Shown one piece after another: positions 39,483 through 64,000 of a stretch of 64,000 bases of DNA. The notes beneath the pieces are model-generated. The model made no database searches and was not told where the DNA came from. It saw only the letters and a program-made list of their open reading frames with translations. The DNA is from Shewanella woodyi ATCC 51908. GTDB lineage: Bacteria; Pseudomonadota; Gammaproteobacteria; Enterobacterales; Shewanellaceae. The translations under genes were made by a program, and so were the position numbers. The stretch is from assembly GCF_000019525.1 (NCBI RefSeq), contig NC_010506.1:3100001-3164000 (forward strand), read 5' to 3'. Positions within the stretch are counted from its first letter, which is position 1, and each line of letters begins with the position of its first letter.

Positions 39483-39914
39483 TCAAAAATAGTTCACTTC
39501 AACCGTATATGTAATTTGATGTTGTCCCTTCTCCATGGCTCTTTTTATCATCAACTCACCACCTACATTAAACTCAAACTCATCCTTGGTTAACTGGTAA
39601 TTTTGCTCTGATGTCTCATTCTCAAGTAGGGGAGTAAAATCGATATCTTGAGAATCCGCAGAGTAGACTCGGATCTGAACATCGGCATTCCCTGCACTAT
39701 TGATACGAAACATTCCAAGTGTCGATGGCGACTGGATACAGGCATCTCCAGTACGTGAGCCTAGTGTCATTCGACAGGATACATTAGCCTGATTTAAAAT
39801 ATCACCAAAATGGACCGACTTGGTTTCAGTGATCTGCAAAGGATCTATTAAGTTAAAACCAACTTGACCAACTAAACTGACAAATAGCACGGCACTTAGC
39901 ATATGCTTGACCAA
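39483..39914 (-). CDS. DUF4402-type minor pilin or adhesin subunit
   Basis: This 143-residue secreted protein follows the DUF4402 pattern: a short signal segment, I-T-E-T-K-S-V-H-F-G-D-I near residue 30, C and a second C in the middle, and a C-terminal beta strand ending H-Q-I-T-Y-T-V-E-V-N-Y-F. It is the last gene of the pilus unit, 48 bp after the usher gene, a position usual for a tip or minor subunit. The start here is TTG at 39914; an ATG at 39902 is the alternative and would lose the Lys of the signal peptide. Neither has a strong ribosome-binding site. Confidence 0.7.
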   Translation of the reverse strand: MVKHMLSAVLFVSLVGQVGFNLIDPLQITETKSVHFGDILNQANVSCRMTLGSRTGDACIQSPSTLGMFRINSAGNADVQIRVYSADSQDIDFTPLLENETSEQNYQLTKDEFEFNVGGELMIKRAMEKGQHQITYTVEVNYF

Positions 39915-39962
39915 TCACATTGAGTTTCAATCAATTATAGTCAGAAATGATAATAAAACAGG

Positions 39963-43079: not shown

Positions 43080-43090
43080 AAATAGAATTT

Positions 43091-43882
43091 TTAAAGAACG
43101 ATTCGAGTCTCAACTACTTTTGCATCGGATAAGCTCTCACTCTCCCGATAACGCACAATGAGTTCACGACCTCTCTCAACTGGCTTAGATAACTCAATAG
43201 CAAAGGTGCGCGCTGTTAACTCTGTGTATACAGCTGCATTTTTATAACTACCTACGTTTTCTAACTCCTGACCACTTGATACCAAAAATAGTTCAATATC
43301 GCCATAACTACTTCTTAGCCCTTCACGCACTAGAGTAACCTCAACACTGGATTGAGTTTTCCTATCTAAATCAGCATCGATAAAGACTTCAGATGAGAGA
43401 GCGCCAAGCCTTAAGATCACTGGAATAGAGATCCGCATATAAGCTGTTACCGATAAACTCAAGGTATTGCTGGTATTTTTTTGTTCATTATCGATAGCTG
43501 TTGGTGCTAATGGGATCTGATGAAAGACAATATAACTTCGGTACTCACCTTCTGGGGTACCTTTAGGTAACCTTAAAGCCATCCTGACTCTCGTCCCCTC
43601 CTCAGGGGCCAAACTCACGCGCCTAGGAGAGTAACGAACAAATTTAGCTAAAGAGGTAGATGAGTTTTCCAAAGAGACATAATCCCCTGTTGGAAGTAAC
43701 TTTTTATCTTCAAAGTAGATATTATATCTGGCGTCTTGCTTGCCTTTGTTAACTAACGAAAATACAGCACTACGCTGCGCTTTATTATCTAACTCTACAC
43801 GAGTTGGCGTCACAAGAAGGTTGGCATAAGCCGCAGAACTAAAAAGTGAAGCTATAAAATAGCTCAAAAAAAATTTTTTCAT
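43091..43882 (-). CDS. Pilus assembly chaperone (PapD-like)
   Basis: This 263-residue periplasmic protein has a signal peptide ending A-A-Y-A-N. The N-terminal immunoglobulin domain shows V-T-P-T-R-V-E-L, an R-x-A-V-F-S-L-V-N-K-G segment, F-V-R-Y-S-P-R-R-V-S-L and R-V-R-M-A-L-R-L-P, matching chaperones of the alternative (CS1/EcpB-like) class. It would hold DUF4402 subunits for delivery to the usher. It lies between the major pilin gene and the usher gene on the same strand. A stem-loop precedes it in the pilin transcript. Confidence 0.85.
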   Translation of the reverse strand: MKKFFLSYFIASLFSSAAYANLLVTPTRVELDNKAQRSAVFSLVNKGKQDARYNIYFEDKKLLPTGDYVSLENSSTSLAKFVRYSPRRVSLAPEEGTRVRMALRLPKGTPEGEYRSYIVFHQIPLAPTAIDNEQKNTSNTLSLSVTAYMRISIPVILRLGALSSEVFIDADLDRKTQSSVEVTLVREGLRSSYGDIELFLVSSGQELENVGSYKNAAVYTELTARTFAIELSKPVERGRELIVRYRESESLSDAKVVETRIVL

Positions 43883-43965
43883 TATTATCGCCCAGCTAAT
43901 TTATATGAGACTGAATCTCAATATTTATTATTGGTTAGCTTGTACTACGAGCATGGTCTCTTTTT

Positions 43966-43999
43966 AACCGCTAAATATTTAAAGAGATACTTAGCGGTT
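43966..43999 (-). promoter_or_regulatory. Intercistronic stem-loop between pilin and chaperone genes
   Basis: A 9-bp stem (AACCGCTAA / TTAGCGGTT) closes a 16-base loop. It lies just after the pilin stop without a T run on the minus strand. It is more likely an mRNA-stabilising or attenuating structure that lets pilin exceed chaperone and usher than a full terminator. Confidence 0.5.
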
Positions 44000-44012
44000 T
44001 ATACAGGTACTT

Positions 44013-44483
44013 TTAGTACGTTACATCGACAGTATAAGTCAGGTTTTTAGCACCTGCTGTCGCACTTGCCGCAACGATATCTAAACTACCACCTACTTTT
44101 AACACAGCACTATTGCCAGTGACTGTTAATGTGTTACTTGACACACTGGGAGTAAAAGTTACACCAGGAACACTGGCTGAATCGGCCGCAGAAAGGGCAA
44201 TATTGACCGTTGTGTTATCAGCAGCGATGGTAAACTCACCAGATAAAGCGGCATTACCACCAGCAACACAAGCTGTACCTGAAGTGTTATCTGCATAGCC
44301 TAAAGTACAGTTACCGTCAGCAAGAATACTCACATCACCAAACTCCATCACAGCAGTTTCAGTGACAGAAATTGGGTAAACCAGATTGAAATTTGCCGTA
44401 CCTGTCGCTTGAGCAGCGTCAGCTTGAGCTGAGATAAAAAAAGTAGACGCAATCAGAGTAGAAAGTAGAATATTATTCTTCAT
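44013..44483 (-). CDS. DUF4402-type major pilin
   Basis: This 156-residue secreted protein has a signal peptide ending A-Q-A-D-A-A, then the DUF4402 domain: I-S-V-T-E-T-A-V-M-E-F-G-D near residue 38, two cysteines (N-C-T-L and T-A-C-V) and a C-terminal N-L-T-Y-T-V-D-V-T-Y strand. It is Ala/Thr/Ser/Val rich, as pilins are. Being first in the unit with a following stem-loop, it is the probable major subunit. The minor subunit at 39483 is a distant paralogue. No experimental role is known to me for this family. Confidence 0.8.
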   Translation of the reverse strand: MKNNILLSTLIASTFFISAQADAAQATGTANFNLVYPISVTETAVMEFGDVSILADGNCTLGYADNTSGTACVAGGNAALSGEFTIAADNTTVNIALSAADSASVPGVTFTPSVSSNTLTVTGNSAVLKVGGSLDIVAASATAGAKNLTYTVDVTY

Positions 44484-50577: not shown

Positions 50578-53394
50578 TCATGATGATTTATAACAATTTC
50601 CACCACTTTTTTTCGCCCTAGACATTAATTCATCCGCGGTTTTCAATAACTCGACAGCCACATCACCATCAGCTGGGTACATGGCAATACCAATATTGGT
50701 GATCACATTCACATCAATCTGTTCAATTTCGAAAGATTTTGAAAGGTTACTGATGATGGTTTCAGCAACCTGACACACAATATCTAAGTCTTTAGTGCGA
50801 TTTAAAATCACCACAAACTCATCACTGGAAAAGCGTGCCACGGTATCTGAGCGACGCACCGATTGCCTTAACCCTTGAGCCAACTTTTTCATCAGCTGAT
50901 CGCCCACCTGATGGCCTAATTCGGTATTAACAGATTTTACTCCGCTAAAATCTATAAATAGCACAGCAAACATACCAAGCTCGCGAGCATGGAGTAAAAT
51001 CGCCTGTTCTAGCCTATCATCCAACAGTGAACGATTCGGCAGAAGAGTTAAGGTATCATAATTTGTCAGGTGCAAAAGCTTCTCTTCTAGCTCTTTTCGC
51101 TTTTTTACCTCTTTAGAGAGTAAAAATTTCACGAAGATAAAGAGAGTGACAAAAATTATCAGGAAAACACAGATAATCATACACGCCCAATAACCTACTC
51201 TTGAAGGCTCAGCAGCGGTTTTTGACACCCAATTTCGGTAGATGTCTTGACGCATTGGTTGATTAACACCGCTCAATACCTGATTAATCAAGGGCACTAG
51301 TCTTGCTCTATCTGGGTGAACTCCAAAATGACTATGCTGTTCAGAGAAATCGGCCAAAACCGACATTTTCAGCTGGTTAACCTGCTGAAGCTTCAATTGA
51401 GCGGCCATATTAATGACTTTTTCAATAAAGGCATCAGCGAGACCATCAGAGACAGCTTTCAATCCCGCTTCAGTATCTGCAACTAACACTAACTCTATGC
51501 CATATTCGGACCCTAACAGCTCGTTGATCAGCTGGTAACCCTCAACAATTGCCACCCTTTGACCCGATAACTGTTGAATATTAAAGACAGATTCTTTATC
51601 AATTCCCGTCGCTAAGGCCCACGGCGATGGCCAATAAGGTTCACTGAATAGTAGCTGCCTTGAGCGGTCTTGAGTTTTAGCTACACTCCCTGCAAGTTCG
51701 ACCTCACCTTTGAGTAGTGCAGAGATCAAGCTCTGCCAATTTGGATACTCAACGGCTTCAACTTCGATTGCTAATTTATCTTGTAAGAGCTCTACAAGTT
51801 CGCTGTTTACACCAGAAAAAATGCCAGCTTGATTAGTAAATTCCATCGGTTTCCAGTTAGCCAGATAACCGACCTTCAAAGGGGGCATATTCGCAAGATA
51901 CGCCTTATCCTGCTCAGATATTTCAAGTAGATGTACCTTATCGGTATAGATCCGATTGTTACTGTCTAATACCCATTTTTGCTCTATTTCTGCAAACTCT
52001 TCTTGGCTGATTAATGCAAACCCCTGCTTAATCCGCTTTGATAGTCCACTGTTTCCTACTTGGGAGAGAACAAAGATATCGGTATTAAACTCTAAGTCCA
52101 TAAACTGATAGAAATCAGGCCCAACCCCCTTTTGAACTAAGTAGTGCTGAGTCCATGCAGAAGAAGCAACAAAGCTTGAAATGTTCCCTGCTTGAGCAGC
52201 TTCTATCATGGCATCGACAGAGTCATACAGTTTCAATTCGGCTTCTGGAAATGTCTGCTTTAATTTATCTAAGTAAGGCGCTGTAGGTACCGCACCTATA
52301 CGGGTGTGGTTTATCGCTGACAAGGTATCAATAGGCGCACCGACACTAAATAAACGGCTTTTCACTTGATACAGAAGCTGCAACCTTTGTAAACCAGTAT
52401 TAAGGGCATCACTTTCGGGATAACCAATATGAACATCTGCTTTACCTTTGCGGACAAAATCCAGTGAACTATTCATATCACCAGTGGCGTAGCTGACTGG
52501 GATCCCAGTTTTCTCAGACCATAAATCCCAGATATCAACATATAAACCATGTGGTCTGCCATCAACACCTAAATTGACATAAGGTTCGATATTTAACGTT
52601 GCTGCAATTCTTACTCCCTCTTGCTCCTGAGCAATGCCTAGCCAGTGCGCCTCAATCTCTCTAATACGCGCGTTATCTAGCAGAGAAAAACCTGAATTGA
52701 TCTTAGCTAATAGTTGAGTCTCTCCATGTTTAACCGCGGGACTTAACCCCACCTGTTTTATCAGTAAACGACTCCTATTAGGAAATAGCTCTGCAATCTG
52801 ACGACTGGTCTTACTGCTTTTTATCTGCCCTTCCATCCCAGCAAATACCAACACTTCACCAATAAGCGCAGCCTGTAACAACGCATTGCGGTTTTTGTAA
52901 TACTTAAATGTCAGCTTCGGTGAAAGTGCCAATAACGAAGCCTCATGGGAAGAGCCTGAGACTATGCCCACATGATAAGGCTGAAGCTCTTCTATGTTGT
53001 GCTTTTTATTTAGCGTCTTATGCAGATACAGATGAGTATTAACTGTTGAAATTGGCGTTGCAAAATCGAAGCGTTGCAGACGCTTATCTGTTACTGCCAT
53101 GCCAATATGTACACTGGCTTGACCTGAGTCGAGCTGTTCAAGCCCCTCTTTCCAATGCCGGGCAACGAAGACGACTTCCTCACCGACTTGCTGTGACCAC
53201 GCTCTCCATAGATCAACCAGTAAGCCTTCGGACTCTCCCGTCTCTCCAATAAACTGGTAAGGGTAACTGTCGGCGCCCATCACAATGACTAGTGGCTTTT
53301 TATCATTAGCGGCGAGTACAGATGTGAATAAAAGAAAAAAGAAAACGCTCAAACATCTAATAAATAATTTCAAATCCAATTCCCGAAAGGTCAC
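50578..53394 (-). CDS. Sensor with three tandem solute-binding domains and a degenerate GGDEF domain
   Basis: This is a 938-residue membrane protein. A signal segment (about 8-28) is followed by three consecutive periplasmic SBP_bac_3-type domains (about 32-255, 262-475, 505-725), a transmembrane helix (about 735-760), and a GGDEF domain (about 780-935). Each periplasmic domain repeats the pattern of an aromatic-rich start, D-x-W and an internal G-x-x-D segment. The GGDEF signature reads S-S-D-E-F, so cyclase activity is doubtful. The listed start is GTG at 53394; a TTG at 53373 with GGGA upstream gives a cleaner signal peptide. It is transcribed alone between aspS and cmoA. Ligands are unknown, probably amino acids or similar. 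Confidence 0.88.
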   Translation of the reverse strand: MTFRELDLKLFIRCLSVFFFLLFTSVLAANDKKPLVIVMGADSYPYQFIGETGESEGLLVDLWRAWSQQVGEEVVFVARHWKEGLEQLDSGQASVHIGMAVTDKRLQRFDFATPISTVNTHLYLHKTLNKKHNIEELQPYHVGIVSGSSHEASLLALSPKLTFKYYKNRNALLQAALIGEVLVFAGMEGQIKSSKTSRQIAELFPNRSRLLIKQVGLSPAVKHGETQLLAKINSGFSLLDNARIREIEAHWLGIAQEQEGVRIAATLNIEPYVNLGVDGRPHGLYVDIWDLWSEKTGIPVSYATGDMNSSLDFVRKGKADVHIGYPESDALNTGLQRLQLLYQVKSRLFSVGAPIDTLSAINHTRIGAVPTAPYLDKLKQTFPEAELKLYDSVDAMIEAAQAGNISSFVASSAWTQHYLVQKGVGPDFYQFMDLEFNTDIFVLSQVGNSGLSKRIKQGFALISQEEFAEIEQKWVLDSNNRIYTDKVHLLEISEQDKAYLANMPPLKVGYLANWKPMEFTNQAGIFSGVNSELVELLQDKLAIEVEAVEYPNWQSLISALLKGEVELAGSVAKTQDRSRQLLFSEPYWPSPWALATGIDKESVFNIQQLSGQRVAIVEGYQLINELLGSEYGIELVLVADTEAGLKAVSDGLADAFIEKVINMAAQLKLQQVNQLKMSVLADFSEQHSHFGVHPDRARLVPLINQVLSGVNQPMRQDIYRNWVSKTAAEPSRVGYWACMIICVFLIIFVTLFIFVKFLLSKEVKKRKELEEKLLHLTNYDTLTLLPNRSLLDDRLEQAILLHARELGMFAVLFIDFSGVKSVNTELGHQVGDQLMKKLAQGLRQSVRRSDTVARFSSDEFVVILNRTKDLDIVCQVAETIISNLSKSFEIEQIDVNVITNIGIAMYPADGDVAVELLKTADELMSRAKKSGGNCYKSS

Positions 53395-53522
53395 AAAACT
53401 GTAAATGCGATGTTGCTTTTACGCTATTAGACAAAATTTTATGGAAAATTTCCAGTAGCAGACTTGCTGCTAACAGCTATGTTTCGTTAGAATGACACGT
53501 TGAATTTACACATTTAAATCGA

Positions 53523-54254
53523 ATGAACTCTTCTCAAGATACTATCTACGCACAAGCATGTGAAAACATTAGTGACTTTCAGTTCGACGAAAAAGTCGCT
53601 GGTGTGTTTAATGACATGATCCGTCGCTCCGTACCAGGTTACGGTCAAATCATTCAAACACTTGGGGAACTGGCCCATAAATATGTTACGCCAGACAGCC
53701 ATGTCTACGACTTAGGTTGTTCACTCGGCGCAGCAACATTAAGCATTCGTCGCAAAATAGGTTCACGTAACTGTACCATCATTGCCGTCGATAATAGCCA
53801 GTCAATGATTGAGCGTTGTCAGGAAAATTTGGGGGCTTATGTCAGTGACACCCCTGTTGATCTTGTCTGTGGCGACATACGAGATATCAAGATTGAGAAT
53901 GCTTCTATGGTCGTGCTTAACTTTACCATGCAGTTTTTAGCACCTAACGACAGAGATGCATTAGTCAATAAGATATACAAAGGCTTAAAACCTGGCGGTA
54001 TTCTAGTACTATCTGAGAAGTTAAACTTTGAGGACAGTTCAGTCCAAAGTCTACTTGATGATCTTCACCTCGACTTTAAAAGAGCCAATGGTTACAGTGA
54101 ATTAGAAATAAGTCAAAAGCGTAGTTCACTAGAGCATGTCATGAAACCAGATACCTTAGCGCAACACGAAATGCGATTAAAAGCCCAAGGCTTTACCCAC
54201 TTCAACTTGTGGTTTCAATGCTTCAACTTTGCCTCTATGGTTGCAATCAAGTGA
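53523..54254 (+). CDS. cmoA: Carboxy-S-adenosyl-L-methionine synthase
   Basis: CmoA makes carboxy-SAM from SAM and prephenate for the cmo5U34 modification of tRNA wobble uridine. The 243-residue class I methyltransferase-fold protein has motif [14 protein letters not shown] near residue 63 and a V-L-N-F-T-M-Q-F-L segment typical of CmoA. It precedes cmoB on the same strand with a 91-bp gap that carries a hairpin. Confidence 0.96.
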
Positions 54255-54275
54255 TACCTGTTCACCCATTAATAC

Positions 54276-54300
54276 AAGGAGAGCCAACTAAGCTCTCCTT
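54276..54300 (+). terminator. Hairpin between cmoA and cmoB
   Basis: A 9-bp stem (AAGGAGAGC / GCTCTCCTT) closes a 7-base loop. The T run after it is poor, so it may attenuate rather than stop transcription into cmoB. Confidence 0.45.
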
Positions 54301-54345
54301 AACATCTATGCTTTATTCTCATACTCCTTTAAAAGGTGGCATTAA

Positions 54346-55338
54346 GTGATCAGTTTTAGCTCATTTTATAAAAAAATTGCGGATTCGAGCCTTCAACATT
54401 GGCTTGAAACACTGCCTGCTATCTTAGGCCAGTGGCAACGTGAACATAAACACGGCACCTTGCCTAAATGGGAGAAAGTACTAAACAAACTCCATTACCC
54501 TAATCCTGACACATTAGAACTAAAAGACTCAGTAACCATAGGCAGCGGTCAGCAACTCACCTCTGGGGAGCAGCAGAAGCTGGAAAACTTGCTGAGAATT
54601 TTTCAACCTTGGCGCAAAGGGCCTTTCTCGGTTCATGGTATTAACATAGATACAGAGTGGCGTTCAGACTGGAAGTGGGAGCGTATTCTTCCTCACCTTT
54701 CCCCTCTTAACAATCGAACCGTATTAGATGTAGGGTGTGGTAGTGGTTATCACATGTGGCGCATGTTAGGAGAAGGGGCGAATCATGTTGTCGGCATTGA
54801 CCCATCAACCCTATTTCTTTGCCAATTTGAAGCCATTAAACGTTTAGCGGGTGAAGAGCAGCCCATCCACCTCTTACCCTTAGGCATAGAAGAATTGCCA
54901 CCGTTAGATGCTTTTGACACCGTATTCTCTATGGGTGTTTTGTATCACAGACGTTCTCCCATTGATCATTTGTTACAACTTAGGGATCAATTGCGAACAG
55001 GTGGTGAACTGGTTTTAGAAACATTAGTTATCGACGGTGACGAAAATACGGTTCTGGTGCCAGAAGATAGATATGGCAAAATGAATAATGTATGGTTTCT
55101 TCCCTCTGCTGCGGCATTGGCACTTTGGCTAAAGAAAGCTGACTTTGTAGATATTAGATGCGTTGATATCGATGTGACATCACTTGCAGAGCAAAGAAGC
55201 ACTGATTGGATGCCAAATGAGTCGCTGGTCGACTACCTTGATCCAAGCAATATTGATCTGACAGTAGAGGGGTACCCTGCGCCTAAACGTGCAACGTTTA
55301 TCGCAACTAAAAATCAACCCAATAAAGATCTGATCTAA
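54346..55338 (+). CDS. cmoB: tRNA U34 carboxymethyltransferase
   Basis: CmoB transfers the carboxymethyl group from carboxy-SAM to 5-hydroxyuridine-34 of tRNA. The 330-residue protein has the CmoB N-terminal region (W-L-E-T-L-P-A, R-K-G-P-F) and a SAM motif [14 protein letters not shown] near residue 128, with [10 protein letters not shown] after it. The start is GTG at 54346, with AGGTGG upstream. Confidence 0.96.
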
Positions 55339-55434
55339 CAAGCTAGCTTATCCACTTTGGCTAGAGTCAAAGTGATAAATATGGCTAAAGAAGTTATTTT
55401 TACAGAACAAATACATAAGTAAATGGGAAGCACT

Positions 55435-56181
55435 ATGTTTAAACAGATAATCTGTATTGCGATAGCAGCGGGACTAACCGGTTGTGCAGCGACATCTCAG
55501 GAAAACGCAAACTTACCTAAACCAGTAGATGTTACTGTGTTAGACACAAGTTTAGCGCGACAACAAGCAGATTTGATTCAGATCATGGATGACAGTAACA
55601 CCGCTCAATCAGCTGCAATTTCAGGACTATCAAAACAGATTGTCTCTTTAGAGAAGAAGCTTTCAACACTTAAACTATCACCTGAAGAAAAAGTTGTCCC
55701 AGTCGCGCTCGATTGTCCTCCCTCACCTCTAGCCGGTAAGTTTCTTCTTGGTGCTATTGAAAATGTCTTTGTTGAGGAGGTAAAAGCCAGTTTCAATACT
55801 CGTATTGATACTGGTGCAGAGTCATCATCCCTTGATGCCCGTAACATCATTCTATTTGAACGTGATGGAAAGCAATGGGTTAGATTTGATGTATTTACAT
55901 TAGGCGAAGATGCACCAGCACAAACCTTTGAATCAAAAGTAGAACGCTTTGTCAGAATTAAGCAAGATTCAGATGAAAAAACCGATCGCCGACCTGTTAT
56001 TCACGCGCATCTGAAGATTGGCCAATACTCGGCTGAGACGGATCTTAACTTAGTCGATCGCAGTCACTTAGATTTCCCGCTTCTACTCGGTCGTAAATTT
56101 ATGCAAGATATCGCTGTCGTTGATGTAGGACAGACCTATATTCATGGCAAAAAGAAGCCAGCTGTAGAATCAGCTAAATAG
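55435..56181 (+). CDS. Retropepsin-like lipoprotein (ATP-dependent zinc protease family)
   Basis: With the ATG at 55435 (GGGAAG upstream) the product is 248 residues and starts with a lipoprotein signal ending L-T-G-C, so it is likely anchored in the periplasm. An earlier ATG at 55423 adds 4 residues. After a coiled region, the protease domain shows R-I-D-T-G-A-E-S-S-S, the aspartic retropepsin D-T-G-A motif, and F-P-L-L-L-G-R-K-F-M near the end. The family (PF05618 type) was named a zinc protease, but the motif points to an aspartic protease. It is the first gene of a five-gene unit, 10 bp before the next gene. Confidence 0.85.
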   Translation: MFKQIICIAIAAGLTGCAATSQENANLPKPVDVTVLDTSLARQQADLIQIMDDSNTAQSAAISGLSKQIVSLEKKLSTLKLSPEEKVVPVALDCPPSPLAGKFLLGAIENVFVEEVKASFNTRIDTGAESSSLDARNIILFERDGKQWVRFDVFTLGEDAPAQTFESKVERFVRIKQDSDEKTDRRPVIHAHLKIGQYSAETDLNLVDRSHLDFPLLLGRKFMQDIAVVDVGQTYIHGKKKPAVESAK

Positions 56182-56191
56182 GAATTTGTAA

Positions 56192-57706
56192 ATGCACTCT
56201 AAAAAACCTTTTTACATACTGGTTGCCCTGCTATTTATATCAGGCATAGCCGCAAGTGTATTTCGCGGTATCGAGCATAATGTCCCTTTCCTACCTGGCA
56301 AACAGGTCCAAAGCTGGGCTGTCGATGCTAAAGTTAGCTTTCAAGGTATAGGTGAGCCTGCAGAGGTCTCCTTCTCTCTTCCTAACGATCCTGCATTTGA
56401 AGTGCTTGTTGAGAATGCATCTTCACCTGGATATGGCCTGACAATAAGCCAAGATAACCAGGACCAAGAACGCCGCGCACTTTGGTCTGTACGCTCGGCA
56501 ACTGGACTGCAAAACCTTTACTACAAAGTCACACTGATCCCAACAGGGACAACACAAGTGATAGCAGAGCAGGAGCCTACTGCACCTAAAGACTTCATCT
56601 GGCCAGCAACAGAGAAAGATGCAGCTGAGCAGGTGATTAGTAAAGTTTGGGCTAAAAGTGCGACTAACTTAACCTTTGCCCAACAACTCAATAAGGCATT
56701 AAATGCTGCGGAAAGAACTCAAAACGTAGAGCTGCTATTAAGCAGCAATACCCCAACAAAGCTCTTCCTGCATATGCTTCACAGTAAAGGGGTTCCAGCG
56801 CAGGAGGTCAGTGGCTTATACCTTGAAGATCAGCGCCGTAGACAACAATTAAGTAGCTTTGTTGAAGTTTACAATGATGGTGAGTGGATACTGTTCGATC
56901 CATCAAACGGTACTCAAGGCCGAAAAGACAACTTACTACTTTGGGATCGCTCAGGGAAATCAACCTTAGATGTTACCGGCGGCGTTAACTCACAAGTTAA
57001 CTTCTCCATGCTACAAGACACACGCTCAGCCCTTGCCACCTCTTTGGATGTCATGAAAAATCAAGGAGCATTAGATTTCTCCTTGTATCAACTTCCACTT
57101 GAAGAGCAAAGCCTATTTAAAGGGATATTATTGATCCCTATTGGCGTGCTTATGGTCGTTTTTCTACGTGTTATCGTTGGACTTAAAACCTCTGGCACTT
57201 TCATGCCAGTGCTTATTGCCCTCGCATTTATTCAAACAACACTGCTCACAGGTTTAATTGGTTTCATTCTTATCGTAGCCTGTGGCTTGATGATCCGCTC
57301 CTACTTGTCACAGCTCAACTTACTGCTTATTTCACGAATATCGGCAGTGATCATTGTTGTTATAGGCATCATAGGCATATTTACTCTCCTGTCCTACAAG
57401 TTTGGTTTGAGCGAAGGCTTAACCATCACCTTCTTCCCGATGATAATCTTAGCTTGGACCATTGAGAGAATGTCTATCTTGTGGGAGGAGGAAGGTCCTA
57501 AAGAGGTACTTTTACAAGGCGGAGGAAGCTTATTTGTCGCAACACTAGCCTATCTGGCCATGAGCGCAACTTGGGTTCAGCACTGGGTGTTTAACTTCCT
57601 TGGTATTCATCTTGTGATATTGGCGATTGTCTTACTGATGGGACAGTATACAGGTTACCGTTTACTCGAACTTAGACGCTTTAAGCCATTGGCAGGGGAT
57701 AAGTAA
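56192..57706 (+). CDS. Inactive transglutaminase domain fused to seven membrane helices
   Basis: This is a 504-residue protein. An N-terminal membrane segment (about 7-24) precedes a periplasmic region (about 25-300) with a transglutaminase-like part: L-H-M-L-H-S-K-G-V-P-A-Q-E-V-S-G and V-E-V-Y-N-D-G-E-W-I-L-F-D-P-S. The catalytic Cys is not present where the fold expects it, so the domain is probably inactive and binds peptide. From about residue 305 to the end there are about seven hydrophobic helices. This matches the 7TM-transglutaminase-inactive family. The stop overlaps the next gene's ATG by one base, so translation is coupled. Confidence 0.85.
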   Translation: MHSKKPFYILVALLFISGIAASVFRGIEHNVPFLPGKQVQSWAVDAKVSFQGIGEPAEVSFSLPNDPAFEVLVENASSPGYGLTISQDNQDQERRALWSVRSATGLQNLYYKVTLIPTGTTQVIAEQEPTAPKDFIWPATEKDAAEQVISKVWAKSATNLTFAQQLNKALNAAERTQNVELLLSSNTPTKLFLHMLHSKGVPAQEVSGLYLEDQRRRQQLSSFVEVYNDGEWILFDPSNGTQGRKDNLLLWDRSGKSTLDVTGGVNSQVNFSMLQDTRSALATSLDVMKNQGALDFSLYQLPLEEQSLFKGILLIPIGVLMVVFLRVIVGLKTSGTFMPVLIALAFIQTTLLTGLIGFILIVACGLMIRSYLSQLNLLLISRISAVIIVVIGIIGIFTLLSYKFGLSEGLTITFFPMIILAWTIERMSILWEEEGPKEVLLQGGGSLFVATLAYLAMSATWVQHWVFNFLGIHLVILAIVLLMGQYTGYRLLELRRFKPLAGDK

Positions 57707-58668
57707 TGAGATTCGAATTTGCCATGCCTTCTTCGCTGCACAAGAGTGGCGTCTTGGGCATGAACAAGCGCAATATTGACTATATTGGTCGTTATAATCC
57801 GCGTAAGTTTTATAAGCGTGTCGATGATAAACTCACCACAAAACAGCTAGCGATAGCCAATGATATTGCCGTCCCTGCACTCATTGGTGTTGTACGTGAA
57901 CAACATGAGATTGAAGAGATCCCAGCTATGGTCGAGGGCGAATCAGGGTTTGTTATCAAACCTTCGAAGGGCTCTGGCGGTAAAGGGATCTTGGTAATCA
58001 CTAAAGTCGAAGGTGATCGCTACTTTAAGCCTAATGGCCAGGAGGTCACACACAGTGAAATCTATCGCCATGTATCCAACATCTTAAGTGGCCTATTCTC
58101 GCTTGGTGGTGCCCCAGATGTAGGTATCGTCGAGGGCTTGATCCAATTCGATCCTGTATTCGATGGATACTCCTATGAAGGTGTACCGGATATCAGATTA
58201 ATCGTCTACAAGGGCTTCCCTGTTATGGGGATGCTAAGACTTTCGACAGCAGCATCTGACGGTAAAGCGAACTTACACCAGGGCGCGGTTGGTGTTGGTG
58301 TCGATATTGGTACAGGTAAAGGGCTACATGCGGTGCAATTTGACACTCCAGTTGATCTGCACCCTGATACCAATAAAAAATTAACCGACATTCAGGTACC
58401 TCAGTGGGATTTTTTACTTAATACCGCCTCAAAAGCCTATGAGATGTGCGAAATGGGTTATCTGGGCACAGATATGGTACTTGATAAAGTGAAAGGGCCA
58501 CTTCTGCTTGAGCTTAACGCCAGACCAGGACTCGCCATTCAGATCGCAAATGGAAGGGGAATTCTTCCCTATCTAAATCATGTCGATTCGTTAGGCAACC
58601 ATAATATGACAGTAAGTAAACGTGTTGAATATGCTAAAAAGCATTTTAGCCATAACGCTGAAAGTTAG
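57706..58668 (+). CDS. RimK-like ATP-grasp ligase (alpha-L-glutamate ligase-like)
   Basis: This is a 320-residue cytoplasmic ATP-grasp enzyme. ATP-binding segments are G-F-V-I-K-P-S-K-G-S-G-G-K-G near residue 85 and the metal-binding E-L-N-A-R-P-G-L-A near 273. The N-terminus M-N-K-R-N-I-D-Y-I-G-R-Y-N-P-R lies in the first 30 residues. The family joins an amino acid such as glutamate to a carboxylate or peptide using ATP; the substrate is unknown. It overlaps the 7TM gene by 1 bp and the following gene by about 38-47 bp. Confidence 0.88.
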   Translation: MRFEFAMPSSLHKSGVLGMNKRNIDYIGRYNPRKFYKRVDDKLTTKQLAIANDIAVPALIGVVREQHEIEEIPAMVEGESGFVIKPSKGSGGKGILVITKVEGDRYFKPNGQEVTHSEIYRHVSNILSGLFSLGGAPDVGIVEGLIQFDPVFDGYSYEGVPDIRLIVYKGFPVMGMLRLSTAASDGKANLHQGAVGVGVDIGTGKGLHAVQFDTPVDLHPDTNKKLTDIQVPQWDFLLNTASKAYEMCEMGYLGTDMVLDKVKGPLLLELNARPGLAIQIANGRGILPYLNHVDSLGNHNMTVSKRVEYAKKHFSHNAES

Positions 58669-60364
58669 TTTTTTACTAACAGTTACAACGGCGGCTCAGG
58701 CCGCCGTTTCACCACTGCCCATACTCATAGATCAGTGTCTACAACTCCCCTCACCTGCAAAACAGCTCTCTCAATCTGACACTGAGCGACATACACAACA
58801 AAATACGCGCACCCAGAGTCATCAGTTAGAGCTAACTTTACTGAGCTTGTTTAACATTAAAGACCGCCTAGCCTATTACAAAACTTTCCCACTCAAGCCT
58901 CTATACAAAGAGGGGCTGCTCCAGTGCCAGCTCCGTCTTTCGGATATGGTTGATGACACCCTTAACCTGCCTCAGATCCATCAACTTGCCTCCTCCTTAC
59001 TAAAAAGTGGTGATCCAGAGTTAAGCCAACTGGGCATACGAGTCAAAAGATTAATTAACGAAAATAAAGCGCAAACCTTTAAGTCTCAACTCTATACTGC
59101 ATTGGCCAGCATCAGGCAGGGGCTGAGAAGTAAAGATCTGACCTTAACGTTTTCCGGCACATCATGCCAGCTTCCCGTTAATAGTCTTGAAGTAAATAGC
59201 ACTCAGGATAACTTTCATCAATCTATTGCTTCCTACTTACTTGAGCAGGATGACAAATCTTGTCAAAAACTTGTCTGGCAGGCATACCAAGGACGAGCGA
59301 AAGATAAAAGCACTCCGGCGTTAACCCGTATTGCCAACCTCAAGCATCGTGAAGCAATAAAAGCCGGATTTAAAGACCATAGCTCCCATGCATTATCAAA
59401 CCAGTTTCTCTCCTCAACAGAACTGGTGGGAGCTTTTCTCGATATAGAAACAGCCTTATTCAATACTCCACCGTGGGAGATAGGACAGAGATTAGCTGCT
59501 GCAGATAAGACGCTAGTCAAACAAGTCAGCTCAGCAACCTTTATTCAACAGATCTATGGTAAAGCCAAAAAACTTGGATTTAAATTTGAGGTAGTAACCG
59601 AGCATATTCATCGCATATGGCATCAAAATAGACTGTTAGGAGAGATCTATCTCAATACAAGCAAGCGCGCAGGCGTTTACAGGTTAAGAGCTCCCATTCT
59701 GGGGTTTCAGTTTGCCCAGATACAGCTCAATATGAAGCCAGAGCTCTCAAGCTTACGTGATAAACAACAGCTCGTGTCGGCAATGGCCACAGCAATATCC
59801 GAGCTCTCTAGTAGTAGTCATTACTATCTCGTCAACACCTTAGGTGAGACCTCTGACAGCTATCTTTTAGGCCAACTCTGGTTAACTGAGTTTCTCTCTG
59901 AAGACATACTGGAAGTTAAACAACCTGGAAGCAGAGAGGAGATAGCCAGTAAATATTCCACACAACTAAAAGTATTTCGCGCCAAAGTGGCTTTAAATTT
60001 TTATCAGAACAAGGACACGAAAACTTACCACGATCTCGCAGCTGAATTTAGTCATGCCTTTGGTCAAACTTGGTCAGAAACAGATAGTTACCCCTATAGC
60101 TTCTTTGCGCTTGCAGATCTCGGTCCACTCTATTATCAGGATATTTGGCAAGAAGCATTAGCCGATTTAATATTCCAAAGCACTAAGGGCTGTATAAACC
60201 AACAAAAAGTATTGGCGCAGTTGTTGATCAATGAAGATTCACTCAGCCTTAGCCAAGTCTTAACCACCTTGCTAGGTGAGCCTGTTGATCCCATTTCACT
60301 CATTAAAAGGATAGAAGATGTCTCCTACTCTAAAGACAAGTCTGCTCTCTCTTGCACTCTTTAG
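58631..60364 (+). CDS. M3-peptidase-like exported protein lacking the zinc motif
   Basis: With the ATG at 58631 (577 residues; a GTG at 58622 is possible) it starts with a signal peptide ending A-A-Q-A. The second half resembles M3 oligopeptidases: K-K-L-G-F-K-F-E-V-V, L-L-G-E-I-Y-L-N-T, and near the C-terminus L-G-P-L-Y-Y-Q-D-I-W-Q-E-A-L-A-D-L-I-F, which matches the M3 Y-Y-S-Y-x-W-x-x-x-x-A motif. Where M3 enzymes carry H-E-x-x-H, this protein reads A-T-A-I-S-E-L-S. No H-E-x-x-H occurs anywhere in it. It is therefore probably a pseudo-peptidase that binds peptides. Similarity was judged by eye. It overlaps both neighbours. Confidence 0.6.
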   Translation: MLKSILAITLKVSFLLTVTTAAQAAVSPLPILIDQCLQLPSPAKQLSQSDTERHTQQNTRTQSHQLELTLLSLFNIKDRLAYYKTFPLKPLYKEGLLQCQLRLSDMVDDTLNLPQIHQLASSLLKSGDPELSQLGIRVKRLINENKAQTFKSQLYTALASIRQGLRSKDLTLTFSGTSCQLPVNSLEVNSTQDNFHQSIASYLLEQDDKSCQKLVWQAYQGRAKDKSTPALTRIANLKHREAIKAGFKDHSSHALSNQFLSSTELVGAFLDIETALFNTPPWEIGQRLAAADKTLVKQVSSATFIQQIYGKAKKLGFKFEVVTEHIHRIWHQNRLLGEIYLNTSKRAGVYRLRAPILGFQFAQIQLNMKPELSSLRDKQQLVSAMATAISELSSSSHYYLVNTLGETSDSYLLGQLWLTEFLSEDILEVKQPGSREEIASKYSTQLKVFRAKVALNFYQNKDTKTYHDLAAEFSHAFGQTWSETDSYPYSFFALADLGPLYYQDIWQEALADLIFQSTKGCINQQKVLAQLLINEDSLSLSQVLTTLLGEPVDPISLIKRIEDVSYSKDKSALSCTL

Positions 60365-61418
60365 TATCACAGCAATCACGCCAGCCATTGCCGCTAAGAG
60401 TGATCTAGAACTAGATACCCCTACTCACCAACAGGTTTATGATGGCATAAAAAGTAATCTTGAAGATCACCTTTATCAGCTACCTCCCAGAGTCCAAGGG
60501 CATTATGGGATTAGACAATACCGAATGACTGGCAATGATATTTATGCGAACGCAGCCCTTGTTGATCTCTATGCAGTAACAGAGTCTCAAGCCTTCTACG
60601 CATGCCAACTAGATAAACCTGGCTTCATTGATACAGAAGCTAAGAAAGCGATATCAGTGCTCGGTAAAGGACCGAGAGCCAAAGCACGTAAAAAAGCCCT
60701 TAAACCATTTCCAGAGTTTCTTTTTTATACCGATGTATTGTTGCGCTTCTCTAGCCGTATCGATGAGTTTGGATTAACTGGCCCCTGTAATGACAAGCTT
60801 ATCTCAACGCTGAAGAAAGCTAACCTAGAACAGGGATTAACCGATAAGGCGATGATCAAATCATGGGCAGCCCAACTAATTAACTATGTATATTGGGCAA
60901 AGCAGCTCGGAGTTGGGGATTACCTTTCATCTTATAAACAAGCATTTATTGAAGTTTACCCCAATGAGAACGATCATAAATTAAGTAAAAAGCAGTTTAG
61001 AAACAAACTCTATGGCATGACACACTTTATTTTTGCTGCCAGTGAGTATTACCAACACCAAGTCGATGCCAAAGAGTTTGACTGGATATTGAAATACTTT
61101 GAAAACAACATCGAGCGGATACTTAAAGATGCAACTGACGATATTATCGCTGAAGTAGGGATAAGTTTTCATCTAGCTGGGCTATCAGATAACAAAGTGG
61201 TATCACTTACACAAAACCACATTATCAATGCCTATGATCCTAAAGAGCAGTTTATTTTATCCCCGATGGGAAATCCAGATATGGCAATGGGTGAGCATAG
61301 AAACGTGTTAGCCATGATGTTACTTGACTGGCCAAAGGAGCTTCATCAAGGTCCCTACTTCCATAAAATTAAAGCGACGAAGAAATACCTCCCTAAGCTC
61401 GTCGAGATAAAACAATAG
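60318..61418 (+). CDS. DUF3541-like exported protein
   Basis: This 366-residue protein has a signal peptide (T-I-T-P-A-I-A-A) and a mostly helical mature part beginning D-L-E-L-D-T-P-T-H-Q-Q-V-Y. It has segments H-Y-G-I-R-Q-Y-R-M-T-G and Y-G-M-T-H-F-I-F-A-A-S. From memory it fits DUF3541, a family with no known activity. A few conserved-looking His and Glu residues (E-V-G-I-S-F-H, G-E-H-R) could form a metal or active site; that is speculation. Its ATG overlaps the preceding gene by 47 bp, with AGGA upstream. It is the last gene before a 33-bp palindrome. Confidence 0.7.
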   Translation: MSPTLKTSLLSLALFSITAITPAIAAKSDLELDTPTHQQVYDGIKSNLEDHLYQLPPRVQGHYGIRQYRMTGNDIYANAALVDLYAVTESQAFYACQLDKPGFIDTEAKKAISVLGKGPRAKARKKALKPFPEFLFYTDVLLRFSSRIDEFGLTGPCNDKLISTLKKANLEQGLTDKAMIKSWAAQLINYVYWAKQLGVGDYLSSYKQAFIEVYPNENDHKLSKKQFRNKLYGMTHFIFAASEYYQHQVDAKEFDWILKYFENNIERILKDATDDIIAEVGISFHLAGLSDNKVVSLTQNHIINAYDPKEQFILSPMGNPDMAMGEHRNVLAMMLLDWPKELHQGPYFHKIKATKKYLPKLVEIKQ

Positions 61419-61425
61419 TTTTAAC

Positions 61426-61458
61426 CCCGTTGGCTTGAGCAGTGCTCAAGCCAACGGG
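61426..61458. promoter_or_regulatory. 33-bp perfect palindrome before the LysR gene
   Basis: Two 16-base arms (CCCGTTGGCTTGAGCA and its complement) surround one base, with no mismatch. It begins 8 bp past the DUF3541 stop and ends 2 bp before an ATG of the LysR gene. The T run needed for a rho-independent terminator is absent. It could be a terminator-like RNA hairpin or an operator. Confidence 0.7.
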
Positions 61459-61487
61459 CAATGTTATCGACCACAATGGGATCGAAC

Positions 61488-62387
61488 ATGGACAGAGCAA
61501 AATCAACCCTTGAACAATGGCGGATCCTTCAAGCTGTAGTCGATCATAGCGGCTACTCTCAAGCTGCCAAACAACTAAATAAAAGCCAATCCTCCTTGAA
61601 TCATGCGGTTGCAAAACTGCAAGATCAGCTTGGTGTACAACTACTTGAAGTCAAAGGACGAAAAGCCTACTTAACGGCTCAGGGAGAGGTACTGCTGAGA
61701 CGCTCTAGGCACATCACAAACTCTGTTAATGAGCTTGAACAACTGGCAAATAATTTAGAGAAAGGTTGGGAGCCAAACCTGACAATCGCCAGAGAGATTA
61801 TCTACCCCATGCCCACACTTGTTAACGCATTAAAACGATTCCAACCAGATAGCCGAGGTACAAGAGTCACGATTTTAGATTCAGTGATCAATGGGACTCA
61901 AGAGTTAATCCGCGACGGTGAGGTAGATATAGCAATATGTGGCGGAGTGCCACCAAAGGGGTTTATTGCAGAACCCTTGTGCCACATAAACTTCTTACTG
62001 GTGTGTCACCCCAATCACCCACTGTGCTCTGAAACAGTTATTGAAGATGATCTTATCTTGGCTCAACATCTACAGATAGTCATTAAGGACACAGGTCAAT
62101 CCATTAGCACTGAAGCAGGCTGGTTAAAAGCGGAGCAAAGATGGACTGTATCAAATTTTCATGAAGCGATAGAGATCCTTGAACAAAATATTGGTTTTTG
62201 TTGGGTACCTGAATATCTGGTTTGTAACTTAATCCAAGCGGGTAGACTTAAGAAGTTACGCTTAAAAGGAAACACCCACAAAAAAGCGCTATTGCACTTG
62301 GTGATCCCAAATCGCGATCTACAGGGACCAGCAAGTGAACATTTGGAGTCGCTAATTTTAAGAGAACATAAGAAAGATATTGATTAA
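61488..62387 (+). CDS. LysR-type transcriptional regulator
   Basis: With the ATG at 61488 the product is 299 residues; ATGs at 61461 and 61476 are in frame, but the first would sit directly on the preceding palindrome. The N-terminal helix-turn-helix (about 6-65) has G-Y-S-Q-A-A-K-Q-L-N-K-S-Q-S-S-L-N-H-A-V. The rest is a substrate-binding-like effector domain with D-G-E-V-D-I-A-I-C-G-G. No ligand can be read. It follows the five-gene envelope operon on the same strand and overlaps the end of the convergent SprA-related gene by 4 bp. Confidence 0.9.
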   Translation: MDRAKSTLEQWRILQAVVDHSGYSQAAKQLNKSQSSLNHAVAKLQDQLGVQLLEVKGRKAYLTAQGEVLLRRSRHITNSVNELEQLANNLEKGWEPNLTIAREIIYPMPTLVNALKRFQPDSRGTRVTILDSVINGTQELIRDGEVDIAICGGVPPKGFIAEPLCHINFLLVCHPNHPLCSETVIEDDLILAQHLQIVIKDTGQSISTEAGWLKAEQRWTVSNFHEAIEILEQNIGFCWVPEYLVCNLIQAGRLKKLRLKGNTHKKALLHLVIPNRDLQGPASEHLESLILREHKKDID

Positions 62388-63691
62388 ACAGAAAAACTTA
62401 AAGAGCTAGCGACACTGGATCTGGGCTCATAGCGCTCTGAAACAGTCTCTGTTAAATAGTGATGGGAGTCCGTCTCCAAAGTCATTGATTGGGCACTGAG
62501 CTGACTATTTATCTTATCAACTGAGTCAGACACAGGATTAACCTCATCAAGCTGAGGCTTAGTAATGGCGCCAGTTTCATCCACATCACCAGCCGTTGTA
62601 AACTTAGGAGGGTCAAAAATAGGGGTCTGATCAATACTCGATTGTGCACCAAGCAGTGGAGCCATCTCCTCAATAGAGGGCGCGTCGTTAACTCTTTGCT
62701 CCGCCAACTCAGCTCTAGCTTGATTTAACTTTCTCATCGCCTCTGCTGCCACTCGAATATCAGCCATAGAGGGATCGGTTGGTGCCATCGCAGCAGCGTA
62801 CACTTGCCTCATCTTGTTGATTGTCGCTAAAGGGTTACCTGGCACAGTAGAGATATCAATTGAGACCTCTCCGTCGACAGCATAACGTCTACCATCACTG
62901 CCCTGCTCATAACTTAGCTGTGGACTCTGAGCATGTACGCCACCTACAGTTGCATGCGCTTGTTCATGAGAGCGAACCTCCGCATCTCTCTTCGCTAGTT
63001 CAGCTAAGATCTTTTGCTCTAATACTAACGCTTTGGCACTGCTCTCTTCTGAAGCTTTATCTTCCTCTTGTGTTGATTCAAAAGGATTAAAAACTGGTTT
63101 ACTTCCTTCATCAATATGTTCAGGTCTTTCCTGACTAGGTTCGAGTGAAGGCTTGGATGCTGACTCTTGCCCTGAAAATACAGGAGATGCATCTGCACCA
63201 GTTACAGGGCTAAAACTTGTATCAGGTTCAAGTTGGGGCTCCTTAACACCTGTTATCTGGCTAGCGGGTAGTTCACCGCCCTGTTGTAATGCAGAGCTAC
63301 TTATATTTGTACTTGTACTCACCAAACCATTAATAGATAAGGCACCTTGAGTTAAACTAAAGCTGCTAGGGGGTAAAGAGGAACTTACGGGTGGCAATTC
63401 CGCGGTTAAGGTCGACTCAGCTCCTAACTCTGCTCCTATTTGAACACTTAAATCCGCTGCTGTATTGGCATTAAGTGAAGCATTATTAACTTCAACAGTC
63501 GGTGGTGCATGGTTTGAAGATAAAGTGCCTTTTAGGGTTGGCTTAGTCGATAACGAGCTTGGGGATGTAGAGTTTGGCGATACCGTTACAGTCGAAACAG
63601 ATGTCGAGTAGGATATTCCAGACAAGCGCTTTGTGGGCGAAAGGTTATCACTTCCCCCCGACAAAGCAGATGAAACATTAACGCCTAGCAT
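62384..63691 (-). CDS. SprA-related putative metalloprotease (CJM1_0395 family)
   Basis: This 435-residue protein has a long Ser/Thr/Pro-rich low-complexity N-terminal half and a conserved block around residues 225-320. The block includes R-S-H242-E-Q-A-H246, a possible H-E-x-x-H zinc motif, then Y-E-Q-G-S-D-G-R-R-Y-A-V-D-G-E-V and A-P-T-D-P-S-M-A-D-I-R-V-A. This is the SprA-related family, also annotated as putative metalloprotease CJM1_0395; activity is unproven. No clear signal peptide is seen. It follows the small gene at 63697 by 5 bp on the same strand, so the two are one unit. Confidence 0.8.
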   Translation of the reverse strand: MLGVNVSSALSGGSDNLSPTKRLSGISYSTSVSTVTVSPNSTSPSSLSTKPTLKGTLSSNHAPPTVEVNNASLNANTAADLSVQIGAELGAESTLTAELPPVSSSLPPSSFSLTQGALSINGLVSTSTNISSSALQQGGELPASQITGVKEPQLEPDTSFSPVTGADASPVFSGQESASKPSLEPSQERPEHIDEGSKPVFNPFESTQEEDKASEESSAKALVLEQKILAELAKRDAEVRSHEQAHATVGGVHAQSPQLSYEQGSDGRRYAVDGEVSIDISTVPGNPLATINKMRQVYAAAMAPTDPSMADIRVAAEAMRKLNQARAELAEQRVNDAPSIEEMAPLLGAQSSIDQTPIFDPPKFTTAGDVDETGAITKPQLDEVNPVSDSVDKINSQLSAQSMTLETDSHHYLTETVSERYEPRSSVASSLSFSV

Positions 63692-63696
63692 GGAAA

Positions 63697-63969
63697 CTAG
63701 ACCTCAATATTAATAATTGTACCCAAAGTTTCTGATGAGGTTTCTAGCACTTCAGCAGCGGCTTCACCTTGATTTTGTGCCTCAACGGCTGACACTAACG
63801 CTTCTGTTTTATCTACATTTTCAACGGGTCTAGCTTCTTGCGTCTCTGCACTTTGGGTCGGTTGAGCAGGTGGTGTTGGAGAGGCAACATCAACTGTGGC
63901 TTGTGTTAAACCAGTCTGCGCACTCTGCAACCCGACTTGACCGGATGAAAAACTGGGTGGTATTTGCAT
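63697..63969 (-). CDS. Small Ala/Gln-rich protein, unknown function
   Basis: This 90-residue acidic protein begins M-Q-I-P-P-S-F-S-S-G-Q-V-G-L and ends L-G-T-I-I-N-I-E-V. It is rich in Ala, Gln, Pro and Glu and lacks membrane segments. The L-G-T-x-I-N-I-x-V end loosely resembles YjfB-like putative motility proteins, but the rest does not help. It lies 5 bp upstream of the SprA-related gene on the same strand and probably pairs with it. The remaining 31 bp to the window end show no gene. Confidence 0.6.
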   Translation of the reverse strand: MQIPPSFSSGQVGLQSAQTGLTQATVDVASPTPPAQPTQSAETQEARPVENVDKTEALVSAVEAQNQGEAAAEVLETSSETLGTIINIEV

Positions 63970-64000
63970 AGCTTTGGCTCCAAGTCAGCTTCAAATAAAT

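What the first reader, a model, noticed from the sequence alone, without database searches (positions are those of the whole stretch)
55435..61418. Five-gene envelope operon combining retropepsin, 7TM inactive transglutaminase, ATP-grasp ligase, M3 pseudo-peptidase and DUF3541
The genes are tightly coupled (gaps or overlaps of +10, -1, about -38 and -47 bp). One product is a predicted lipoprotein protease, one a multi-pass membrane peptide-binding protein, one a cytoplasmic ligase, and two are exported proteins. Together they could form an ATP-driven peptide- or glutamate-tagging and trimming system across the inner membrane. The first three members are known to co-occur in Proteobacteria with no settled function. 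The last two added genes are the less described part here.
Basis: partly seen in the sequence, partly recalled or inferred. Interest (0 to 1): 0.7.

Follow-up and report, generated by a model that had tools for sequence, protein, structure and literature searches.

The report
Extended rlo operon with DUF3541 partner
This marine bacterium carries a known but poorly understood set of three cell-envelope genes, extended here by two exported proteins, one of which (DUF3541) turned up almost only in genomes that also hold the core membrane gene, which suggests a partner for a pathway whose product is still unknown.

Summary
The five genes are real and placed as described. The first three are the published rlo operon (retropepsin RloA, membrane protein RloB, ATP-grasp RloC; PMC12239564), so that core is known. 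The last two are additions. The order rloB–M3-like–DUF3541 is conserved in 100 of 129 Shewanella genomes. It recurs with M3 proteins that keep their zinc motif in Thalassotalea, Gallaecimonas-group genomes and G134, and with one that lacks it in Paraferrimonas.

The two added genes behave differently. DUF3541 depends on rlo: none of the 19 Shewanella genomes that lost rloABC from the locus has it. In the order sample all 36 DUF3541 genomes hold rloB (100 of 197 genomes do), 20 of them unlinked. Of 22 further records picked through DUF3541, 21 hold rloB. The M3-like protein has lost its zinc motif (0 of 127), evolves fast, and stays under similar constraint after rloABC and DUF3541 are gone, so it is not tied to Rlo.

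Best reading: an envelope poly-glutamate make-and-trim pathway (biochemistry inferred from Pseudomonas), with DUF3541 as an Rlo-dependent periplasmic step and an M3-derived protein as a loosely attached neighbour. One-system idea: supported for four genes, not for the M3-like gene.

The parts
55423..56181 (+). rloA: lipoprotein-like exported retropepsin-type aspartic protease (start 55435 also possible)
   Evidence: PF05618 124.6 bits; DTGA in 108 of 108 Shewanella RloA, RPV[IVL] in 108, DR-type motif in 101, lipobox-like pattern in 96; aligned to solved chains 9g58, 9g59 and 2pma
56192..57706 (+). rloB: inactive transglutaminase domain fused to 7 transmembrane helices
   Evidence: PF14400 and PF14402 over cut-off; only PF14402 match in the genome
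57706..58668 (+). rloC: cytoplasmic ATP-grasp, alpha-L-glutamate ligase-like
   Evidence: TIGR02291 447.4 bits against cut-off 314.2; PF14397; lowest median dN/dS of the eight genes, 0.012
58631..60364 (+). M3-derived exported protein without the zinc motif (alternative start GTG 58622)
   Evidence: fold; family hits; HExxH in 0 of 127 Shewanella copies, 3 of which are short fragments; intact HExxH in operon-linked relatives of the Gallaecimonas group, G134 and Thalassotalea
60318..61418 (+). DUF3541 exported protein, all-helical, possibly an alpha/alpha toroid
61426..61458 (+). 15-bp perfect hairpin between DUF3541 and the LysR gene, no U-run; possible operon end
   Evidence: -30.8 kcal/mol, z -6.9; one place in the genome with up to 2 mismatches
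53523..55338 (+). cmoA and cmoB, upstream neighbours (not part of the system)
   Evidence: found in 128 of 128 stretches (127 Shewanella, 1 outgroup)
61461..62387 (+). LysR-type regulator downstream; stays in place when rlo is lost (19 of 19)

Best explanation
An rlo-type operon extended by two exported proteins. RloC (cytoplasm) uses ATP to build poly-alpha-glutamate on an unknown acceptor. RloB presents or moves it through the inner membrane. RloA, a lipoprotein-like retropepsin, cuts the chain in the periplasm. DUF3541 is an exported, possibly toroid-shaped protein that acts on the RloB/RloC-dependent product (binding, cutting or removing it) and has no use without it. The M3-derived protein descends from an oligopeptidase that could finish off short peptides in related operons (zinc motif intact in Thalassotalea, the Gallaecimonas group and G134). 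In Shewanella it has no zinc motif, evolves fast, and its role no longer depends on Rlo. Shown here: gene order, conservation, co-occurrence of DUF3541 with rloB, loss of the zinc motif, persistence of the M3-like gene without rlo. Shown by others in Pseudomonas: poly-Glu cleavage by RloA and the genetic interaction with rloB/rloC. Inferred: that RloC makes poly-glutamate, the role of RloB, the step done by DUF3541, and any activity of the M3 proteins.
For: Published core (PMC12239564). Catalytic DTGA and the equivalents of poly-Glu residues R114 and R137 are present in the window's RloA (my reading of the alignment by spacing; K46 is Arg here). Order rloB-M3L-DUF3541 in 100 of 129 genomes. 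DUF3541 with rloB: 36 of 36 in the order sample, where 100 of 197 have rloB (by genus 6 of 6 against 28 of 79, chance 0.0014 if genera were independent); 104 of 104 in the genus sample, which shares 12 of these genomes with the order sample; 3 of 3 in the class sample with 79 of 369, the window's genome being one of the 3 and G674's match a 52-position fragment; 21 of 22 records reached through DUF3541, the exception a MAG; at least two of the 22 are genomes of the order sample again (identical rloB places: G692 and G128, G699 and G189). In 20 of the 36 order-sample genomes the copies are unlinked, so neighbourhood alone does not explain it. Median dN/dS groups DUF3541 (0.055) with rloA (0.051), rloB (0.026) and rloC (0.012), against 0.179 for the M3-like gene. 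Envelope role in the same genus: disrupting the inactive-transglutaminase 7TM gene of S. vesiculosa HM13 raised vesicle output 1.9-fold and changed vesicle size (PMC12096838).
Against: No one in what I read has shown that RloC makes poly-glutamate or that a natural Rlo substrate is glutamylated. DUF3541's tie to rloB rests on few independent lineages; on the Shewanella tree the paired test gives 3 of 4 pairs the same way, none the other way, 1 no difference, p 0.25. One of 22 records has DUF3541 and no rloB found. rlo is kept without DUF3541 at the locus in 8 of 108 genomes and without any DUF3541 in 64 of 100 order-sample genomes, so DUF3541 is not needed for Rlo. The RloA here lacks the disulphide cysteines said to mark periplasmic orthologues, and both it and RloB score far under NCBI's named models. 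The vesicle phenotype was not complemented for this gene and could be polar on downstream genes; whether HM13 carries the five-gene order was not checked.
Confidence: 0.5

Rival explanations
1. The core acts on peptidoglycan or its regulators rather than on poly-glutamate; DUF3541 is a glycan-active toroid (hydrolase or lyase-like) that works on the same cell-wall or surface glycan.
For: rloA triple mutants have cell-shape and cell-wall-antibiotic defects, and the authors suggest an effect on peptidoglycan enzymes (PMC12239564). The rows listed include glucoamylase, GH88/GH105, unsaturated glucuronyl hydrolases and a polysaccharide lyase; Pfam gives a weak GH127 hit, E 0.016, under its cut-off.
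Against: The same list holds squalene cyclases, LanC-like proteins and transcobalamin, so the fold does not choose a chemistry. RloA's positively charged channel and its cleavage of 8 or more Glu favour an anionic peptide.
Confidence: 0.25
2. The M3-like protein is a dedicated Rlo partner, for example a peptide-binding pseudo-enzyme that regulates RloA.
For: It lies between rloC and DUF3541 in 100 of 129 genomes; M3 proteins of this locus, with and without the zinc motif, fall on one side of a 100/100 branch against other M3 proteins in the pruned tree; a GP-x-[YF][YF] pattern of the M3 substrate site survives in 83 of 127.
Against: Kept in 19 of 19 Shewanella genomes whose locus lacks rloABC and DUF3541, with similar dN/dS; kept without rloB in two unnamed f20 genomes, G044 and G098; fastest evolving of the eight genes measured. 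The first, unpruned tree did not show the grouping.
Confidence: 0.2
3. DUF3541 follows rloB only because both are common in the same marine lineages; it has no functional tie.
For: Genomes are related; independent events are few and the paired test is not significant.
Against: Unlinked DUF3541 copies in Vibrio, Photobacterium and Zooshikella genomes also co-occur with rloB, while 64 of 100 rloB genomes of the order sample lack DUF3541: a one-way pattern.
Confidence: 0.2

Closest known systems
rlo operon of Pseudomonas aeruginosa (RloA, RloB, RloC; PMC12239564)
   Same: Same three gene families in the same order: exported retropepsin with DTGA, inactive transglutaminase with 7 TM helices, cytoplasmic ATP-grasp.
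   Different: Two further exported proteins; RloA is a lipoprotein-like divergent form without the disulphide pair, below NCBI's cut-offs for RloA1, RloA2 and RloA3; RloB is below NCBI's RloB cut-off; cmoAB lie upstream.
RimB-RimK ribosome-modification system
   Same: Retropepsin plus ATP-grasp glutamate ligase; the paper suggests rlo might have originated from it.
   Different: RimB is cytoplasmic; no membrane protein; substrate RpsF is in the cytoplasm.
M3 oligopeptidases (thimet oligopeptidase, neurolysin, Dcp)
   Same: Fold of the M3-like protein; relatives at the same locus in Thalassotalea, the Gallaecimonas group and G134 keep HExxH.
   Different: No zinc motif in the Shewanella and Paraferrimonas copies.
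DUF3541 (PF12060)
   Same: Window protein is a full-length member.
   Different: No paper found in the library under 'DUF3541' or 'PF12060'; linkage to rlo not reported in what I read.

Membership tests
rlo operon, broad sense | Exported retropepsin (PF05618) with DTGA motif | tested here: met
   signal/lipobox by reading the N-terminus
rlo operon, broad sense | RloB: inactive transglutaminase fused to 7 TM helices | tested here: met
   PF14400 and PF14402 over cut-off; helices not counted separately
rlo operon, broad sense | RloC: ATP-grasp, glutamate-ligase-like | tested here: met
   TIGR02291 447.4 against 314.2 bits
rlo operon, broad sense | Genes contiguous in the order A-B-C | tested here: met
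   rloA, rloB and rloC all in the stretch in 108 of 108 rlo-bearing Shewanella loci
rlo operon, broad sense | Cleaves poly-glutamate; rloB/rloC loss rescues rloA loss | not testable with these tools
   shown in Pseudomonas only (PMC12239564)
NCBIfam named RloA1, RloA2, RloA3 and RloB | Curated cut-off of each named model | tested here: not met
   RloA2 101 of 250, RloA3 99 of 210, RloA1 81.3 of 280, RloB 325.6 of 900 bits
Pseudomonas-type periplasmic RloA | Disulphide cysteine pair in the protease domain | tested here: not met
   no Cys in the aligned protease domain of the window protein (by reading)
Peptidase family M3 | HExxH zinc motif | tested here: not met
   0 of 64 rows; 0 of 127 Shewanella copies
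Peptidase family M3 | M3 fold | tested here: met
   neurolysin E 1e-12, TM by query length 0.56-0.69 in the top ten
DUF3541 | PF12060 over cut-off | tested here: met
   466.5 against 28.2 bits
alpha/alpha toroid enzymes (glycoside hydrolase, terpene cyclase, LanC) | (alpha/alpha)6 fold | tested here: inconclusive

The most novel reading that the evidence does not exclude
A complete envelope poly-glutamate cycle: RloC and RloB make and display a glutamate polymer, RloA cuts chains of 8 or more, a periplasmic M3 oligopeptidase digests the shorter products, and DUF3541 is a new enzyme class with a conserved Arg/His/Glu core that removes or transfers the polymer at its anchor. In Shewanella the M3 step has been lost and its protein reused. 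DUF3541 would then mark genomes with an active Rlo product.
Probability: 0.17. Interest if true: 0.75.

Novelty: new variant of a known kind. Interest (0 to 1): 0.5.

Why it matters
The substrate of the Rlo system is unknown although the system governs osmotic tolerance, biofilm and antibiotic response in Pseudomonas. A family found with rloB in nearly every genome sampled here, even when encoded elsewhere, offers an independent handle on the pathway's product: a soluble, single-domain, confidently modelled protein that can be purified and used to find what it binds. The Shewanella operon also gives a setting in which natural loss of the pathway can be compared between near relatives.

Tried and rejected
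PF14401 was a wrong guess at a family and gave nothing. Rfam found nothing in 53000-64000 at its gathering scores. PDB sequence searches found no relative of DUF3541 (E up to 1), RloB (0.1) or RloC (0.01). Promoter-like and terminator-like sites are at chance level.

The first M3 tree (31 rows: 16 of 127 Shewanella copies, 10 others from this kind of locus including the Anammoxibacter-titled record, and 5 other M3 rows; 10 loci were tried for the latter, 5 gave no usable frame) did not separate locus-type from other M3 proteins; holding all 26 rows together was not rejected (AU p 0.107). I then dropped L084 (a wrong or cut frame) and the rows G051, G005, G226 and Paraferrimonas. In the second tree (26 rows, 13 of 127 Shewanella copies) 21 locus-type rows lie on one side of a 100/100 branch, the Anammoxibacter-titled row with the other M3 proteins. 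The group was therefore chosen after seeing a tree.

The independent-pairs test of rlo and DUF3541 loss is not significant (p 0.25). In dN/dS (NG86) pairs with dS outside 0.05-2.5 were dropped, at most 25 pairs per group were used (of 26 and 6 chosen), and the rlo-minus M3 value rests on 5 pairs. In the 19 rlo-minus genomes the loss of rloB and DUF3541 is genome-wide, that of rloA and rloC was looked at only within the locus. Idea rejected: all five genes as one inseparable system. No supplementary files of papers could be read.
Full report
What is there. Pfam and NCBIfam identify PF05618, PF14400 with PF14402, PF14397/TIGR02291 and PF12060. The fourth protein has no library hit of its own, yet 35 of 40 members of its family hit Peptidase_M3 at E 0.1 or better and its model matches neurolysin and thimet oligopeptidase at best E 1e-12. 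The window is from a Shewanella of 5.94 Mb; the M3-like protein is 94% identical to one named S. woodyi, and I recall that strain ATCC 51908 has this genome size.

The core is known. The first three genes are the rlo operon described in 2025 in P. aeruginosa (PMC12239564; I read abstract, passages, and sections 7, 8 and 12). RloA cleaves runs of 8 or more Glu in vitro, triple rloA mutants fail in low-salt medium, and rloB or rloC deletion rescues that growth. The authors note that rlo is widely conserved in Gammaproteobacteria and that its V. cholerae orthologues are upregulated under VxrB. In the window's RloA the DTGA motif and the arginines that I equate by spacing with R114 and R137 are present; DTGA is in 108 of 108 Shewanella RloA. 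The protein is a divergent form: it scores below NCBI's named RloA cut-offs, as RloB does below its own, and it lacks the protease-domain cysteines.

A same-genus phenotype exists. In S. [quoted passage not shown] abstract, passages and section 9 read). Mutants in a dipeptidyl carboxypeptidase and a glutamate synthase subunit also made more vesicles, and one in a glutamate dehydrogenase made fewer. The hm2192 effect was not complemented, and I did not check that strain's gene order.

How far the five genes go together. In 129 Shewanella genomes (the window's included) rloB is in 108, DUF3541 in 104 and the M3-like gene (E 1e-20 or better) in 127; the two without it are an 810-contig and a 52%-complete assembly. 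By coordinates 100 have rloB, M3-like and DUF3541 in line; 4 have rloB and M3-like but no DUF3541; 4 have DUF3541 elsewhere or on the other strand; 19 have the M3-like gene but neither rloB nor DUF3541. Fetched stretches of 127 genomes and one outgroup show rloA, rloB and rloC together in 108 and all absent from the stretch in those 19, where the M3-like gene still sits between cmoB and LysR (twelve of the 19 laid out). Outside the genus the full set rloA-rloB-rloC-M3-DUF3541 occurs in an uncultured Thalassotalea (two DUF3541 genes), Paraferrimonas, three genomes of the Gallaecimonas group (two DUF3541 genes each; named through the contig length that G040 shares with P0183) and G134 (two DUF3541 domains fused, 701 aa). 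In the order sample I found the M3 gene at the locus in 18 of 100 rloB genomes and DUF3541 in 16, so the extension is a minority form.

DUF3541 goes with Rlo genome-wide. In the order sample 36 of 36 DUF3541 genomes have rloB, against 100 of 197 overall; 20 of the 36 have no DUF3541 near rloB. By genus this is 6 of 6 against 28 of 79 (chance 0.0014, counting genera as independent). In the genus sample it is 104 of 104. In the class sample it is 3 of 3 against 79 of 369; the window's genome is one of the three and G674's match is a 52-position fragment. The scan of named genome contigs kept the best 80 of 338 DUF3541 loci; 22 of the 80 are not titled Shewanella, and of these 22 assemblies 21 have rloB, including both Zooshikella, whose DUF3541 pair has no rlo gene within the stretch read; the exception is a Vibrionaceae MAG. 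The samples share genomes: at least two of the 22 are in the order sample, by identical rloB places. The pattern is one-way: 64 of 100 rloB genomes of the order sample have no DUF3541. On the CmoA-CmoB tree rlo changes 5 times and local DUF3541 9 times; the paired test has too few events to be significant.

The M3-like protein is different. None of 127 Shewanella copies has HExxH (three are short fragments), nor has the Paraferrimonas copy. The operon-linked proteins of the Gallaecimonas group, G134 and Thalassotalea keep it, and in G134 the following glutamate region aligns with thimet oligopeptidase; their activity is not shown. Copies in three f20 genomes (G082 with rlo; G044 and G098 without rloB) also lack it. 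In the pruned tree the copies without the motif form one group (98/99). Median dN/dS is 0.179 for the M3-like gene against 0.012-0.055 for rloA, rloB, rloC and DUF3541, and 0.169 (5 pairs) where rlo is gone. It is under purifying selection, but apparently not because of Rlo.

Mechanism. I take the core as published, infer that RloC builds poly-glutamate and RloB exposes it, and place DUF3541 downstream on that product. The M3 protein would digest short leftovers where active; RloA did not cut runs of 6 or fewer Glu. In Shewanella that step would be lost. Interest is moderate: the core is known, but the near-complete co-occurrence of an unstudied family with rloB is new to what I read (searches listed no report of it).

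After the returned check I recounted against the calls, confirmed that rloC and both DUF3541 copies are present in the Gallaecimonas-group loci, and reworded 'active' M3 to 'keeps its zinc motif'.

Noticed in passing
G044 (L097) and G098 (L098); G082 (L096): In family f20 the zinc-less M3-like gene is followed by a SohB-like gene (PF08496 and PF01343 over cut-off in G082; by reading in the other two), with or without rlo.
   Followed up: partly
Thalassotalea L240, Gallaecimonas group L093-L095, G134 L092: Operons whose M3 keeps the zinc motif have two DUF3541 copies or domains; those without it (Shewanella, Paraferrimonas) have one at the locus. Few lineages, not tested.
   Followed up: no
L299, L301 (Zooshikella): Tandem DUF3541 pair with no rlo or M3 gene in the stretch, though rloB is elsewhere in both genomes.
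   Followed up: partly
window 61426-61458: Perfect 15-bp hairpin with a 3-base loop, single place in the genome, no U-run.
   Followed up: partly
window 11666-13504: Exported M2-type (ACE-like) peptidase with an HHELGH motif by reading; a second metallopeptidase of a related fold in the same window.
   Followed up: no
window 39483-44483, - strand: Chaperone-usher-like cluster (263-aa chaperone-like, 1038-aa usher-like, small pilin-like proteins), by reading only.
   Followed up: no
window 35680-36114, - strand: IS200/IS605-type transposase by reading.
   Followed up: no
L241 (record titled Candidatus Anammoxibacter MAG): Two DUF3541 genes beside an M3 gene with HExxH on the opposite strand; one DUF3541 is 58% identical to the Thalassotalea query, so the contig may be mis-binned.
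   Followed up: no
28 of 128 stretches: The LysR gene is not found within the fetched stretch although it is otherwise the usual downstream neighbour.
   Followed up: no
P. aeruginosa PA1768-PA1767-PA1766 (PMC7314104, passage read): Insertions in a predicted operon of this make-up (export signal, membrane protein, ATP-grasp) appear in a suppressor table of a study of flagellar mutants and exopolysaccharide.
   Followed up: no
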